Assembly (NCBI GenBank): GCA_934466475.1 | Contig: CAKSLI010000004.1 | Location: 1-64,000 of the forward strand | DNA from: an uncultured Oscillospiraceae bacterium | GTDB taxonomy: Bacteria; Bacillota; Clostridia; Oscillospirales; Ruminococcaceae | Direction: 5' to 3' | DNA length: 64,000 nucleotides | Shown: positions 6,655 to 55,762 of the stretch, one piece after another | Layout of the letters: every line of letters starts with the position of its first letter | Position numbering within the stretch: position 1 is the first letter of the stretch | Notes under the pieces: model-generated | Databases searched by the model: none | What the model was told of the DNA's origin: nothing | What the model saw: the letters and a program-made list of their open reading frames with translations, nothing else | Program-made: the position numbers and the translations under genes

Positions 6655-6660
6655 AATAAG

Positions 6661-6888
6661 GGAACCTCTAAAAACCGGTTTGAAAGGGAAAATGGGTAGA
6701 GTGCGCCGAATGCGATGAAAGCCGACGAAGTAAGGCTGTATGCCTTACGAGGAGGTGCAACACGATGTTGCAGAGCGAAATAACCGGGCGACGGCATGGA
6801 CGCCGTCGCATCAGAAATTTCGCTCGTTGAAAGAAGCAGGCGGTGTGCTATACCCATTTTCACTCAAACAAGGTTTTTAGAGGTGACC
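6661..6888. repeat. Family A MITE-like element
   Basis: Full-length copy with terminal GGAACCTCTAAAAACC and GGTTTTTAGAGGTGACC, containing the internal palindrome GGGCGACGGCATG / CATGCCGTCGCCC-type stem and the TAAGGCTGTATGCCTTA stem. It lies between the cas8c and cas2 remnants. Confidence 0.85.
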
Positions 6889-12265: not shown

Positions 12266-12294
12266 TTGCATATTTTGTCAGAATGTGTTATAAT
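12266..12294 (+). promoter_or_regulatory. Promoter of the McrB-WYL-RSH operon
   Basis: TTGCAT (12266-12271), exactly 17 bases, TATAAT (12289-12294). Transcription should start near 12301, downstream of the terminator at 12200-12227. Confidence 0.8.
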
Positions 12295-12352
12295 TAACGG
12301 TATCTATTCAGACGTTAATGAATATAAGGAGCATCGCAACTCTCTGGAGTAT

Positions 12353-13834
12353 ATGATATACAACTGCGATAACGGCAAACAGTTCGTCATTTACTGCTGG
12401 AATATCTTCTCTACGATAATCTTCGTCCAGGAATGCCTGAAGCGCTTCGGCGAAACCGGGGATCAGTTCGTGCTGACCTATTGCGAAAAAGGGGAAAGCG
12501 AGCCTGCGACCCCTGAGAATGAGGCGGCGCAGGAGGAGCTCGTACAGCAGTCCGGCATTTACCAGAATCCCTATTCTTACATGCTGCAATCATCGAAAAA
12601 CCTGATTTTCCGGGGCGCTCCTGGTACAGGAAAAACTCATCTTGCAAAGGAGATCGCCGCTGATATTATAAGCAAGGGACGCGTAAAGAGCTACAAAGAC
12701 CTCACTGATGAGCAGAAAAAACAGGTGGAGTTCGTGCAGTTCCATCCGAGCTATGACTACTCGGATTTTGTGGAAGGTCTGCGCCCGGAAGATAAAGATG
12801 GAACCATAGTTTTTAAGCTTAATCCCGGCATTTTCAAAACGTTCGTAAACCGTGCAATAAAGAACTATGAGGACTCCCAGAAATCACGGGAAATGATTGA
12901 AAATGAGTTCTCCGTCAAGGAAGCTATCGAGAATTTTTTCTCCGATGTAAAACTGAACGTGGATAAGTTCAGGACGATCAACGGAAATGAGTTCAAAATT
13001 TCCAGCGTGGATGAAAAAAACATCGGCATTTACATTCCGGGAAACGCTACATTCAAACATATCACTCTGAATTTTGACGAAATCAGAAAAATGCTGGAAT
13101 CCGGGCAGACATTCAGCAGGATAAAGGACGTCACGACATTCTTTGGAAAGACTTTTGCAACGCAGGGTTATTCTTATGATTTCGCAATTTATAAGGCTAT
13201 AATGGCAAAAAAGAGCAAAGTTTCCAAGACAAAAGTGCGTCAGGAAGAACGGAAAGAATACATCTTCATCATTGATGAGATAAACCGCGGAGAGATCTCA
13301 AAGATATTCGGCGAGCTGTTCTTTTCAATAGACCCCGGATACCGCGGCAGGGATGGCGAAGTTTCCACGCAGTATTCTAATATGCATCCTGACGAGAAGA
13401 AGTTCTACATTCCTGAGAATGTCTATATTATCGGCACAATGAATGATATCGACCGTTCGGTGGACAGCTTTGACTTTGCTATGCGCAGGCGTTTCCGTTT
13501 CGTGGAGCTCAAGGCGGACGAATGCATTGAAATGCTGGATGAGCTTGGTGAGTGCAGGGACGAGGCGGTAAGGAGAATGTCCGCGCTTAATAAGGAAATA
13601 GCGGCAGTCGAGGACCTGAATGAGAACTATCAGATCGGCGCGTCGTACTTCCTGAAACTGAAAAATCTCGATTATGACCAGCTCTGGACGGATTATCTCC
13701 AGCCGTTACTGCATGAGTATATTCAGGGAATGTACAACGAGGACGAGATAATGAAAAAGTTTGCGAGAGCATACGGATATCCCCAGAAATCTGCCAGAGG
13801 TGATGTGAATGAATCGGATCAGGATCAGGGATAA
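12353..13834 (+). CDS. McrB-like AAA+ NTPase
   Basis: Probably a nucleotide-driven motor of a defence-type system. From the chosen start (493 residues): Walker A GAPGTGKT at about 88-95; the McrB motif HPSYDYSDFVEGLRP at 131-145; a helical insert of about 170-290; Walker B with FIIDEINRG at about 304-313; sensor GTMND at 361-365; and arginine-rich MRRRF at 377-381. The N-terminal 80 residues are unassigned. The start is uncertain: the frame is open from 12185, but a terminator and promoter lie in that stretch, so the first in-frame ATG after the start site is used; its ribosome site is poor (AAGGAG lies 21 bases upstream, GGAG only 3). No mcrC follows. The gene overlaps the next by 26 bases. 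Confidence 0.85.
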   Translation: MIYNCDNGKQFVIYCWNIFSTIIFVQECLKRFGETGDQFVLTYCEKGESEPATPENEAAQEELVQQSGIYQNPYSYMLQSSKNLIFRGAPGTGKTHLAKEIAADIISKGRVKSYKDLTDEQKKQVEFVQFHPSYDYSDFVEGLRPEDKDGTIVFKLNPGIFKTFVNRAIKNYEDSQKSREMIENEFSVKEAIENFFSDVKLNVDKFRTINGNEFKISSVDEKNIGIYIPGNATFKHITLNFDEIRKMLESGQTFSRIKDVTTFFGKTFATQGYSYDFAIYKAIMAKKSKVSKTKVRQEERKEYIFIIDEINRGEISKIFGELFFSIDPGYRGRDGEVSTQYSNMHPDEKKFYIPENVYIIGTMNDIDRSVDSFDFAMRRRFRFVELKADECIEMLDELGECRDEAVRRMSALNKEIAAVEDLNENYQIGASYFLKLKNLDYDQLWTDYLQPLLHEYIQGMYNEDEIMKKFARAYGYPQKSARGDVNESDQDQG

Positions 13835-14732
13835 TTCCCAAACTCCCCAGGAGCTTTTTTCTGATATAAGTAGCCTGACTGGCAGGATCGCAAACAAGTC
13901 GCTGAACGCCTTTATTCCCGGGTATATGAGGGAGACCGACTCCATAAAGCCTCACACCAGGAAATACAACGGAATGTTTTACCGCAGCGTGGCGGAGATA
14001 ATCAAGGCGATCTATCCTGCCGATTACAGCAGCACGCATTCGCTGAAAAAGCTGGCGTTTGAATACTGCCATTACGACAGCAGCAAGGAGCTTCAGCCAA
14101 ATGTAAGAAATAACGGAAAAAAGCTCAGCCTGGTCAATCCGCTTAAAATCGTGTGCCTGAACAATCTGTTCTACCTCATTACGTTCTTTGTCAGGGACGG
14201 AGAAATAACCTACATAAACTACCGTATAGACAAGATGAAAAATGTGAGGTGCACCGATATCCCGGCTGACCATTACGAGGATCATATTTCCGAGGAGGAA
14301 AAGTATTACCTCGAGCTGAAGAATCGCATACAGTCCGAAAAGGAAGCAGCCATGCGCAGTAAGAAGATCTACGAGGGGAGCGGGGCTGATGTTGCCGCAG
14401 AGGACTGCGCGAAGCATATGGATCGCTGCGGCTTCAATATCGGGGAATATATCAGTAAGCATCCCACCATGTTCAACGACCGTATCGTAGAATCGCTGAA
14501 AATGAGAGCCGACAGAAAATGCATCGGCAGAATAATTGACACTTTCGGCTTTGAGCCGGATATAACCGATGAATCAGAATCAACGGTCATTGTAACGCTG
14601 TATAACACGTCGTTCACGTCCGTCAGACAGTTTGCGCTCCAGTATTATGACGAGGTGGAGATACTTGATCCGACCGTAAGGGAAGAACTGAAAACGGCAA
14701 TCAGCACACTTGCCGCAAAATACAAGGAGTGA
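13809..14732 (+). CDS. WYL-domain protein
   Basis: 307 residues. Residues about 60-150 fit the WYL ligand-binding fold (VAEIIKAIYP; KLAFEYCHYD; NPLKIVCLNNLFYLITFF; YINYRIDKMKNVRC), with FYL at the signature position. About residues 262-303 fit the WCX C-terminal extension (VTLYNTSFTSVRQFALQYYDEVEILDPTVREELKTAI, given here in pieces: VTLYNTSFTS and EVEILDPTVREEL). No clear N-terminal helix-turn-helix is visible in residues 1-60, unlike many WYL repressors. WYL proteins sense nucleic acids or nucleotides and often occur in defence loci. It starts inside the McrB-like gene (GAGGTG ribosome site) and ends 4 bases before the next gene, so the three genes are co-translated. Confidence 0.8.
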   Translation: MNRIRIRDNSQTPQELFSDISSLTGRIANKSLNAFIPGYMRETDSIKPHTRKYNGMFYRSVAEIIKAIYPADYSSTHSLKKLAFEYCHYDSSKELQPNVRNNGKKLSLVNPLKIVCLNNLFYLITFFVRDGEITYINYRIDKMKNVRCTDIPADHYEDHISEEEKYYLELKNRIQSEKEAAMRSKKIYEGSGADVAAEDCAKHMDRCGFNIGEYISKHPTMFNDRIVESLKMRADRKCIGRIIDTFGFEPDITDESESTVIVTLYNTSFTSVRQFALQYYDEVEILDPTVREELKTAISTLAAKYKE

Positions 14733-14736
14733 GCCG

Positions 14737-16779
14737 ATGAAAAAGACATATTACTGCTTTGCCGCTGACAGGAATGAAAACGGCATAATAAACAAATGGT
14801 AACCTCTAAAAACCGGGACACGAGCAGATTGCGTACATGACTTATATCAGATGCTAGGCGTCAAACCGCAGCGTTTTCCGCCGTAGGCGGATAATGCGTT
14901 TACTGTATGTATTTCAAGGTTTGACAACGAAGCAGATGATATAAGTCATAGAAATCTGCCGTGAAGGAGGTTTTTAGAGGTTACCAAATACCATATTCTT
15001 TGCGTCGGCGTTCCGGAAAACGGTGAAAATCCGGATTTCAGCGTTCTTCCTCCCATGAACGCGCAGGAGATATCCGACAGCGGAACAGAACCTCTCAATA
15101 TGGCGCTGAACAATGAGGACGGCTCTGTAAACGCCGTCCTGGAGCCGTCCGCTTCGACCTACCCGTCAGTTTACTGCGACGATACGGGTATCCACCTGGC
15201 GGTAAAGCCCTTTACCGCCCACTATCACCGGCTCAATCCCGGAAGAATATGGCCCTCAAAGCCTGAGCTTATGCGAACAGTGACCGTTATTGCCGAAACA
15301 GAGCGCGTCACGAAGAAATATGTTAATTACCTCGTCACAAACCGTAAGCTGCCTATACTGAATAATCACTATGCCGAGCATGGATATTATGTGTGTGATT
15401 ATAACGGCAGCGTTGCGTATCTGTCGCTTGTGCAGATGCAGTCTGTCGGCAACCGGTACGGCTTTACCAACGCAAAGCTCTCCGGAAACCGCGTCCTGCA
15501 AACCGATGGCAGGGAGTTCATGCGCCTGCCGCCGCCCTCTGACGAGCTTATAAAACAGCTTGATTCCGTAAGCTATCTCGGCGGTGAGATAACGGATAAA
15601 TTCGATATGAAACAGCTTCGTCTCTATGCGGATACTTTCTTTGTCTTCAGGCGGCAGCAGTTCGGTTCCGCGGAGAGGAAAGCCACTGACACAGCCGCTG
15701 TTGACGAGTTCCGTGAAAGCATTGAAGCGTTTCATCAGGCGCTGCTCCACCGGACTGTTTCTGTCAGCGCGTATTCCGGAATAGAAAACAGGCTTGGGGA
15801 GCTGCTCTGCGATGACGAATCCAGCGAGGCGTACAAGAAGATAGAGCGCGAGCTTATAGAGCAGATCCCGTGCCGCTATTTCAGGAACACCGATGCGTTC
15901 ATGGATATGCTCAATGCAAAGGGCTCCGCGCTGCCTGAAGGCGCGGATAAGAAGAAAAAAGCGGCGCAGCTCAAAATAGCCGCGCTCCAGACATTTTCCG
16001 AGCTTGCCCCTGAGATCGTTGAGCAGTACTGCGGGATAATCCTCACGGAAAAGGAGATCTCCGCCGTTCTCATATCTCTCAAAGAAAAGCTGGATTTCGG
16101 ATTCCAGGGCTTTGAGTTCCGTCTGAAATCTCCGGATTCACTGTATGAAAAGCTGTATGAGCGTTCCAATGAGGCGGGAAAGACTACCGAGGAGCTTTTT
16201 GAAGAGACCAGGGACATACTGCGGTATACCGTATGTTTCAGGGATCCCGATGATTATTGCAGCGGAATACAGCAGATCGTTGATTATATCACAAAAAAGT
16301 ATCACGCTCAGCTTAACGGCTTCCGGAATTACTGGACGCCGTATGTTCCCGGGGATTACAGGGGACTGAACGTTTCTATCCGGCTTCCGGAGCTATACTG
16401 GAACTTCCGCGAGGAAAGGATCTGCCTGGACAGCAGCTGGAAGAACTCCCGCTACTGCATTACCGTGCCGTCATTCTGCCTTGAGATCCAGTTCCACACT
16501 GATAACAGCTACGCTGTCAAGACTGAAAACCATAAGCTGTATGAAGAAACAAGACGCAGCGACTTTGATGAATCTCTCCGCGGATCCCATACAGAACAAA
16601 TGAAGAAGAACCTTGAGAGAGTTAAAATACCGAAAGGCGCGGATTTTATGTATATGGATTCCAACGAATACATTACTGCGCTGTATGATTTTGTTGATTT
16701 TCTCAGGGGTGAGCTTGCGCAGATAAAGGAAAACTGCCGGGATAACCCGCTCATTGATCAGTCGCTGTTCAGGGACTGA
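14737..16779 (+). pseudogene. RelA/SpoT-like nucleotidyltransferase-domain protein, disrupted by a family B element
   Basis: The ancestral gene can be rebuilt exactly: 14737-14797 joined to 14990-16779 gives one open frame of 616 codons plus stop, once the element (14798-14984) and one CAAAT duplicate are removed. At present the first part (atg at 14737, starting KKTYYCFAADRNENG) stops within the element after 22 codons. The remainder is open from 14986, with its first ATG at 15055 but no ribosome site. About residues 390-545 of the rebuilt protein carry a RelA/SpoT-like pattern: FEFRLKSPDSLYEKL, DILRYTVCF, FRNYWTPYVPGDYRGLNV, FCLEIQFHT, HKLYEE. This fold makes alarmones or pyrophosphorylates nucleotides or tRNA in toxin relatives. 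The first 380 residues are unassigned. Whether any product is made now is doubtful. Confidence 0.75.
14798..14984. repeat. Family B MITE-like element
   Basis: Ends GGTAACCTCTAAAAACC and GGTTTTTAGAGGTTAC, flanked by CAAAT at 14793-14797 and 14985-14989. Internal inverted segments pair around ATGACTTATATCA and TGATATAAGTCAT. It interrupts the RelA/SpoT-like gene. Confidence 0.9.
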
Positions 16780-16806: not shown

Positions 16807-16840
16807 GAAAACCGCGTGGATCCTGTGTCCACGCGGTTTT
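16807..16840. terminator. Bidirectional terminator
   Basis: AAAACCGCGTGGA and TCCACGCGGTTTT arms between convergent genes ending at 16779 and 16847. Confidence 0.9.
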
Positions 16841-55510: not shown

Positions 55511-55534
55511 TTACCAACCCTCAATTCATATAAG

Positions 55535-55762
55535 GTCACCTCTAAAAACCTCGTTTGAGTGAAAATGTGTATAGCACACCGCCTGCTTCTTTCAACGAGC
55601 GAAATTTCTGATGCGACGGCGTCCATGCCGTCGCCCGGTTATTTCGCTTTGCAACATCGTGTTGCACCTCCTCGTAAGGCATACAGCCTTACGAGGAGGC
55701 TTTCATCGCATTCGGCGCACTCTACCCATTTTCCCTTTTCAAACCGGTTTTTAGAGGTTCCC
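55535..55762. repeat. Family A MITE-like element
   Basis: Inverse orientation, GTCACCTCTAAAAACC to GGTTTTTAGAGGTTCCC, flanked by ATAAG (55530-55534 and 55763-55767). It lies just upstream of the small ORF and the importer operon; any original promoter of that operon must lie within or beyond it. Confidence 0.9.

What the first reader, a model, noticed from the sequence alone, without database searches (positions are those of the whole stretch)
12266..16779. Three-gene McrB-like NTPase / WYL protein / RelA-SpoT-like domain operon, a candidate undescribed defence system
Seen: one promoter (12266-12294), three genes overlapping or 4 bases apart, encoding a McrB-type AAA NTPase with complete motifs, a WYL-domain protein, and a large protein with a RelA/SpoT-like nucleotidyltransferase pattern. 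Known: McrB normally pairs with the nuclease McrC; WYL proteins are common in defence loci; RelA/SpoT-like toxins (toxSAS) act in abortive infection. Inference: the NTPase senses or remodels DNA or RNA, the WYL protein senses a nucleic acid or nucleotide signal, and the third protein is a growth-arresting effector replacing McrC. I do not know of this exact trio as a named system.
Basis: partly seen in the sequence, partly recalled or inferred. Interest (0 to 1): 0.88.

Follow-up and report, generated by a model that had tools for sequence, protein, structure and literature searches.

The report
Broken restriction genes beside alarmone synthetase
The reported three-gene defence system is really the wreck of two neighbours, an ordinary DNA-restriction pair and a rare pair made of a WYL regulator and an enzyme that probably makes growth-stopping alarm nucleotides; the second pair is real and is found elsewhere beside a matching clean-up enzyme.

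The parts
12353..13834 (+). Gene 1, truncated McrB-type AAA NTPase (first in-frame ATG after the promoter-like site; the frame is open from 12185)
   Evidence: 98% identical to a 577-aa relative P0011 and 75% to 698-aa McrB proteins; lacks about 180 N-terminal residues of the 698-aa P0012 and a 23-residue stretch that P0011 has
13809..13904 (+). Remnant of mcrC: first 32 codons, still overlapping the end of mcrB
   Evidence: 29/32 identity to McrC P0010 (PF10117); DNA similarity to the mcrBC locus of G107 runs on to about 13897
13902..14732 (+). Remnant of the WYL gene (WYL and C-terminal part), fused in frame to the mcrC remnant; together they make the 307-aa frame 13809-14732
   Evidence: 274/276 identity to residues 99-374 of intact WYL protein P0009
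14737..14802 (+). First fragment of gene 3, ending in a stop at the left end of the element
   Evidence: intact 616-aa relative P0001, 99% identical over the 574-aa frame
14798..14985 (.). 188-bp element with 17-18-bp perfect terminal inverted repeats and a 4-bp target duplication, one of nine paired copies in the window
15055..16779 (+). Main surviving frame of gene 3 (574 aa): N-terminal region of unknown fold plus C-terminal RelA/SpoT-type synthetase domain (about 15997-16650, by transfer from P0001 residues 357-574)
16808..16840 (.). Stem-loop after gene 3, terminator-like
   Evidence: 13-pair stem, listed on the minus strand

Best explanation
The locus is the decayed remnant of two adjacent modules. 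One was an ordinary mcrB-mcrC restriction pair. The other was a WYL gene followed by a ~600-aa intracellular nucleotide 3'-pyrophosphokinase. A deletion joined the start of mcrC to the WYL gene, another shortened mcrB, and a small mobile element cut the synthetase, so nothing here is likely to work. In intact relatives the synthetase would move a pyrophosphate from ATP to the 3' position of an adenine nucleotide, giving (p)ppApp-type alarmones and draining ATP; a SpoT-type HD hydrolase removes the product; and the WYL protein, directly upstream and sometimes fused to that hydrolase, senses a nucleotide or nucleic acid and sets expression or hydrolysis. Shown: gene structure, chimera, interruption, pairing, hydrolase linkage, predicted fold, motifs. 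Inferred: enzyme product, WYL ligand, growth arrest, purpose.
Against: The adenosine signature is no proof of product: in the same wider family SaEAS makes both (p)ppApp and (p)ppGpp, and two others make only (p)ppGpp (PMC12691689 abstract). Three of the 6 genomes with the HD subfamily have no detected synthetase of this family, so the hydrolase is not exclusive to it. No HD hydrolase of this kind is found in the window frames of 60 aa or more. Pfam recognised no winged helix in three N-terminal pieces of the WYL proteins. Only four loci could be read, three of them from one genus. A misassembly at the mcrC/WYL junction cannot be excluded without reads.
Confidence: 0.68

Rival explanations
1. 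One reading: a functional three-gene defence operon in which McrB senses, the WYL protein relays, and the RelA-like protein replaces McrC as growth-arresting effector.
For: Three same-strand frames with overlap or 4-bp spacing; the truncated McrB and chimeric WYL frames are free of stops.
Against: Gene 2 begins with McrC sequence; gene 3 is interrupted; 5 of 5 closest McrB loci have McrC and 0 of 5 have the pair; 3 of 4 readable WYL/synthetase loci have no McrB hit in the DNA read, and in the fourth (L003) an McrB-McrC pair stands about 6 kb away.
Confidence: 0.03
2. The intact pair is a toxSAS-type toxin-antitoxin or abortive-infection module: the synthetase kills or arrests on phage infection, the HD hydrolase is the antitoxin, and the WYL protein represses the operon until infection.
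For: A known precedent, FaRel, is flanked by a small alarmone hydrolase antitoxin gene (PMC11782079 passages); a WYL repressor controls CBASS (PMC9122588 abstract and passages). L003 lies near McrBC and NADAR, L089 near PARG and RNA ligase. Rare and patchy: 3 of 71 genomes in a genus.
Against: L001 and L002 instead carry a sensor diguanylate cyclase gene 3 and 15 bp upstream, and their other neighbours, judged by eye from frame lists, look like ordinary genes. No phage-dependent evidence. In the CapW paper the WYL-dependent induction was not needed for protection (abstract).
Confidence: 0.4
3. The pair is a stress-signalling module, not defence: a WYL-sensed signal raises or lowers an alarmone, coupled to c-di-GMP signalling in some hosts.
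For: Cache-GGDEF gene directly upstream in 2 of 4 loci, with 71% identity between them; HD fused to the WYL regulator looks like a signal-controlled eraser.
Against: No hit to it in L003 or L089; L001 and L002 are of one genus, so the two are not independent.
Confidence: 0.3
4. The synthetase pyrophosphorylates tRNA 3' ends, like FaRel2 or CapRel, rather than free nucleotides.
Confidence: 0.12
5. The McrC::WYL junction is an assembly chimera of two strains and does not exist in any cell.
For: Near-identical intact proteins exist (P0001, P0009, P0011); the window contig is the only source read here.
Against: The fusion is in frame, and a 5'-shortened McrB is shared by a separate 15-member cluster, so decay in this lineage is real; not decisive.
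Confidence: 0.12

Closest known systems
FaRel with the hydrolase antitoxin ATfaRel (toxSAS toxin-antitoxin operon)
   Same: RelA/SpoT-type synthetase linked to a small alarmone hydrolase (PMC11782079 passages)
   Different: Here the enzyme is 576-663 aa with a long N-terminal region, the partner directly upstream is a WYL protein, and the hydrolase can be fused to it; an AT2faRel-like antitoxin was not looked for
Apk/EAS family: Tas1/Apk1, Apk2 (MuF phage toxins) and SaEAS (8vx3)
   Same: Closest fold and sequence, RYT/GxN/FH motifs; apk2 is followed by the hydrolase gene aph1 (PMC12226406 passages)
   Different: Pfam finds no export domain in the N-terminal region of P0001 or P0003; paired with a WYL gene; in the plasmid and phage collections no record holds 80% of it
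McrBC type IV restriction
   Same: Gene 1 and the first 32 codons of gene 2
   Different: McrC otherwise lost; not part of the conserved pair
WYL regulators BrxR and CapW
   Same: WYL plus WCX protein beside a possibly suicidal effector (PMC9122588 passages)
   Different: Different effector; fusion to a SpoT-type HD domain in 2 of 4 loci; N-terminal winged helix not recognised
ARG-centred ADP-ribose systems with WYL regulators and alarmone-type HD phosphatases (PMC9503650, section 3.8 read)
   Same: WYL regulators and alarmone-type HD enzymes in one class of neighbourhoods
   Different: No alarmone synthetase is mentioned in that section

Membership tests
McrBC type IV restriction system | McrB AAA GTPase core with NxxD signature | tested here: met
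   McrB model 2e-36, below its cut-off; TMNDIDRS visible; NxxD as McrB motif: PMC11090510 passages; 75% identity to McrB proteins
McrBC type IV restriction system | McrC nuclease partner present | tested here: not met
   Only 32 codons remain
Alarmone synthetase (RelA/SpoT SYNTH) superfamily | SYNTH fold and motifs | tested here: met
   on intact relatives; one search also on the window's frame
Adenosine 3'-pyrophosphokinase (Apk) subfamily | RYT, GxN and YH/FH motifs | tested here: met
   8 of 8 relatives and the window; signature from PMC12226406 passages
Adenosine 3'-pyrophosphokinase (Apk) subfamily | Makes (p)ppApp | not testable with these tools
   Needs an assay
toxSAS toxin-antitoxin | Linked antidote (hydrolase or antitoxin) | tested here: met
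   SpoT-type HD fused or about 2 kb away in 4 of 4 relatives; none found in the window itself
toxSAS toxin-antitoxin | Small single-domain enzyme | tested here: not met
   576-663 aa with a ~350-aa N-terminal region
toxSAS toxin-antitoxin | Toxic on expression, neutralised by partner | not testable with these tools
   Needs an assay
Exported alarmone synthetase (EAS) | Signal peptide or export domain | tested here: inconclusive
   No Pfam domain other than RelA_SpoT in P0001 or P0003; no signal-peptide program was available
WYL transcription factor (BrxR/CapW type) | WYL and WCX domains | tested here: met
   L003 protein above cut-off for both; window protein and P0009 below cut-off for both
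WYL transcription factor (BrxR/CapW type) | N-terminal winged helix-turn-helix | tested here: inconclusive
   No Pfam hit to one in three N-terminal pieces; in the window this region is missing
Known defence systems in PADLOC-DB 2.0.0 | Model match for the synthetase | tested here: not met
   0 families for P0001, the L089 synthetase and the window frame

The most novel reading that the evidence does not exclude
WYL, synthetase and HD form an undescribed self-contained alarmone switch: a large cytoplasmic (p)ppApp-type synthetase with its own sensor region, its own SpoT-type eraser, and a WYL ligand sensor that in some species is physically fused to the eraser. It would work as a phage- or stress-triggered arrest device in gut and rumen Clostridia, with synthesis, sensing and removal of a (p)ppApp-type signal in one locus. 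(Odds lowered from 0.40 to 0.37 on recheck, because an earlier paper on alarmone-based immune systems, cited in PMC7824862, is not held and could not be read.)
Probability: 0.37. Interest if true: 0.74.

Novelty: new variant of a known kind. Interest (0 to 1): 0.5.

Why it matters
It removes a false trio, an easy mistake when a deletion fuses two neighbouring systems in frame, and puts a better target in its place. [quoted passage not shown] Whether cells use (p)ppApp as a controlled internal signal seems open. A synthetase, a hydrolase and a ligand-sensing WYL protein in one locus, with the last two fused in some species, would let that question be tested directly.

Tried and rejected
Whole-genome search from the window: no genome is held for it. 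First genome-contig scan with gene 3 alone: 21 pattern hits, none a relative; the alignment found two. Viral contigs: one locus, found by both the synthetase and the WYL alignment. Plasmids: 21 records of 72,556 match, all only in the C-terminal domain among the 20 listed, 0 cover 80% of the query. Phages: 3 of 50,697, again only the domain. Rfam and tRNA scans of the window: nothing.

Family-level genome searches with the synthetase: 1 of 396 and 1 of 297 genomes (overlapping draws), each the genome already known; order level 8 of 394, of which 1 is full-length and 7 match only the domain. Of those seven, L007 (phage head protein with an Apk-like end) and L008 (Apk-like with an HD gene) look Apk-like, L010, L011 and L012 look like ordinary GTP-type synthetases, L013 like Rel, and for L009 no synthetase-like frame was listed; it was dropped from comparisons. 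These calls are by motif and eye.

WYL profile: 160 of 327 genomes match, but only one at 633 bits; the next is 102 bits, so the rest were treated as other WYL families.

N-terminal region of gene 3 predicted alone: mean pLDDT 51, too poor to search, so its fold is unknown. Whole-model searches mainly saw the C-terminal domain.

The tree of 16 domain sequences splits the RYT/GxN group from GTP-type enzymes (100/98), but has long branches and only 2 of 13 firm inner forks; used only for that split.

McrB neighbours: of the five loci, DNA after mcrC could be read for 7 kb or more in four and 0.4 kb in one (L047).

Considered and rejected: gene 3 as McrC replacement; McrB as part of the conserved unit; chance adjacency of the HD gene.

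HD-subfamily loci without this synthetase: G800, G745 and G798 were read; in G800 a RelA/SpoT-type frame (by eye) stands directly before the HD gene, G745 and G798 show none in the DNA held. All three contigs are short. A seventh, broken HD fragment in G809 (59 bits, with a stop) was not counted among the six.

Papers: the 2020 work cited by PMC7824862 for alarmone-based immune systems is not held; an earlier description there cannot be excluded.
Full report
WHAT IS IN THE WINDOW. Three plus-strand frames lie between 12185 and 16779. Gene 1 (open from 12185, first ATG after the promoter-like site at 12353, end 13834) is an McrB-type AAA protein. Gene 2 (13809-14732, 307 aa) is WYL-like. The ATG of gene 3 is at 14737; its frame hits a stop at the left edge of a 188-bp element (14798-14985) and an open frame of 574 aa resumes with an ATG at 15055. 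The element has 17-18-bp perfect terminal inverted repeats; nine paired copies and one cut copy of this family lie in the window (19 end matches against 0.10 expected), and seven of nine, including this one, are flanked by an identical 4-bp duplication (read by eye from the flanks).

GENE 2 IS A SCAR. A search of about 5.8 billion proteins found two relatives of gene 2 among 794 candidates: an intact 374-aa WYL protein (P0009) and, for the first 32 residues only, a 437-aa McrC (P0010, PF10117). Residues 1-32 are 29/32 identical to the start of McrC; residues 32-307 are 274/276 identical to residues 99-374 of P0009. So the 26-bp overlap of genes 1 and 2 is most simply the inherited mcrB/mcrC overlap (about 23 bp in three of the five loci below), and a deletion took the rest of mcrC and the first 98 residues of the WYL protein. 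In CapW, the N-terminal domain of this architecture is the DNA-binding winged helix (PMC9122588 passages); that this is what gene 2 lost is inference, since Pfam saw no helix-turn-helix in three relatives.

GENE 1 IS AN ORDINARY, SHORTENED McrB. Its best listed relatives are mostly 698-aa McrB-type proteins at 73-75% identity, plus one 577-aa version at 98% (8,000 candidates scored, 120 listed). Compared with the 698-aa P0012 it lacks about 180 N-terminal residues, and compared with the 577-aa version a further 23 residues beside the promoter-like site. In 247 genomes, 59 had a match. The five strongest (442-792 bits) were read: McrC follows in 5 of 5, and neither the WYL gene, the synthetase nor the HD hydrolase was found in the 11.8-19.9 kb fetched around each (0 of 5; after mcrC, 7 kb or more could be read in four and 0.4 kb in one).

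THE CONSERVED UNIT. Gene 3 has eight relatives in the protein search (only the 7,994 candidates sharing most words were scored), the nearest a natural intact 616-aa protein at 99% (P0001). DNA could be read for four relatives: L001 and L002 (two genomes of one genus), L003 (an IMG/VR contig) and L089 (G804, same genus as L001). In 4 of 4 a WYL gene lies directly upstream and overlaps the synthetase gene by a few bases, and the WYL proteins are homologous to gene 2 and P0009. In L001 and L002 the WYL protein carries an N-terminal SpoT-type HD domain (PF13328); in L003 (same strand, one gene between) and L089 (opposite strand, one frame between) a separate HD gene of the same subfamily lies about 2 kb away. 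The other three HD domains are 54-58% identical to the L003 one, and all four keep the HDLLEDT and ADRLHNLR stretches. The L003 HD matches Rel/SpoT hydrolase domains, MESH1 and a (p)ppApp hydrolase of known structure.

IS THE HYDROLASE LINK CHANCE? Each of G001, G002 and G804 has two HD matches, this one and one in a 602-720-aa Rel-like frame. Across 71 genomes of the genus, 6 have the HD subfamily (177 bits or more; the next is 68 bits) and 3 have the synthetase, all among the six; drawing this by chance has p = 3.5e-4, ignoring shared descent and the physical linkage. Against exclusivity: G800, G745 and G798 have the HD subfamily without this synthetase; in G800 it directly follows another RelA/SpoT-type frame.

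MECHANISM. Most likely the intact pair is an alarmone switch: the synthetase makes a 3'-pyrophosphorylated nucleotide, the HD enzyme removes it, and the WYL protein controls the operon or, where fused, the eraser. Shown: gene order, fusion, co-occurrence, predicted fold, motifs. Inferred: product, ligand, growth arrest. Whether it serves defence or stress is open: L003 has McrBC and NADAR nearby, L089 has PARG and RNA ligase, whereas L001 and L002 have a Cache-GGDEF gene 3 and 15 bp upstream.

NOVELTY. PADLOC 2.0.0 has no model for the synthetase. Paper searches with WYL plus toxSAS, alarmone, pyrophosphokinase, HD domain, McrBC, RelA or BrxR terms and on ppApp enzymes listed no title or abstract that pairs a WYL protein with an alarmone synthetase. 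The four listed papers that hold both 'WYL domain' and 'alarmone' were checked by passages, and one section of one was read: it links WYL regulators and an alarmone-type HD phosphatase in ADP-ribose systems, without a synthetase. Limits: one search listed 20 of 24 papers, the library is open-access PubMed Central only, and PMC7824862 cites an earlier paper for 'alarmone-based immune systems' that is not held. The closest known arrangement is FaRel with its hydrolase antitoxin (PMC11782079, passages). So: new variant of a known kind.

Noticed in passing
window, nine pairs from 6660-6888 to 55534-55762: Family of 158-230-bp elements with conserved GGnnACCTCTAAAAACC-like ends and, in seven of nine, 4-bp target duplications; nine paired copies in 64 kb plus one cut at the window start: a dense non-autonomous element family whose transposase was not sought.
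   Followed up: partly
L001:6448-10008 and L002:6319-9843: A Cache-GGDEF diguanylate cyclase gene lies 3 and 15 bp upstream of the HD-WYL gene, suggesting one operon that handles two nucleotide messengers.
   Followed up: partly
L100:1414-3028 (G800): The same HD subfamily directly follows a different RelA/SpoT-type frame of about 380 aa, a second synthetase-hydrolase pairing.
   Followed up: partly
L008:1051-2498 (G602): An Apk-like domain frame, an 80-aa frame and an HD hydrolase gene in a row, resembling phage apk2-iapK-aph1.
   Followed up: no
L003:2915-4863: NADAR gene next to a second, divergent WYL gene between McrBC and the WYL-synthetase pair.
   Followed up: no
L102:5079-10379 and L089:658-13357: A protein of about 455 aa and unknown function, similar by eye, lies near the HD subfamily gene in both G798 and G804.
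   Followed up: no
L103:9579-9752 (G809): A broken fragment of the HD subfamily (60% identity over 58 residues, with a stop).
   Followed up: no
window 203-299/61804-61900, 9508-9612/23874-23978, 9390-9450/39415-39475: Further two-copy repeats of 61-105 bp, 84-87% alike, not part of the TIR element family.
   Followed up: no
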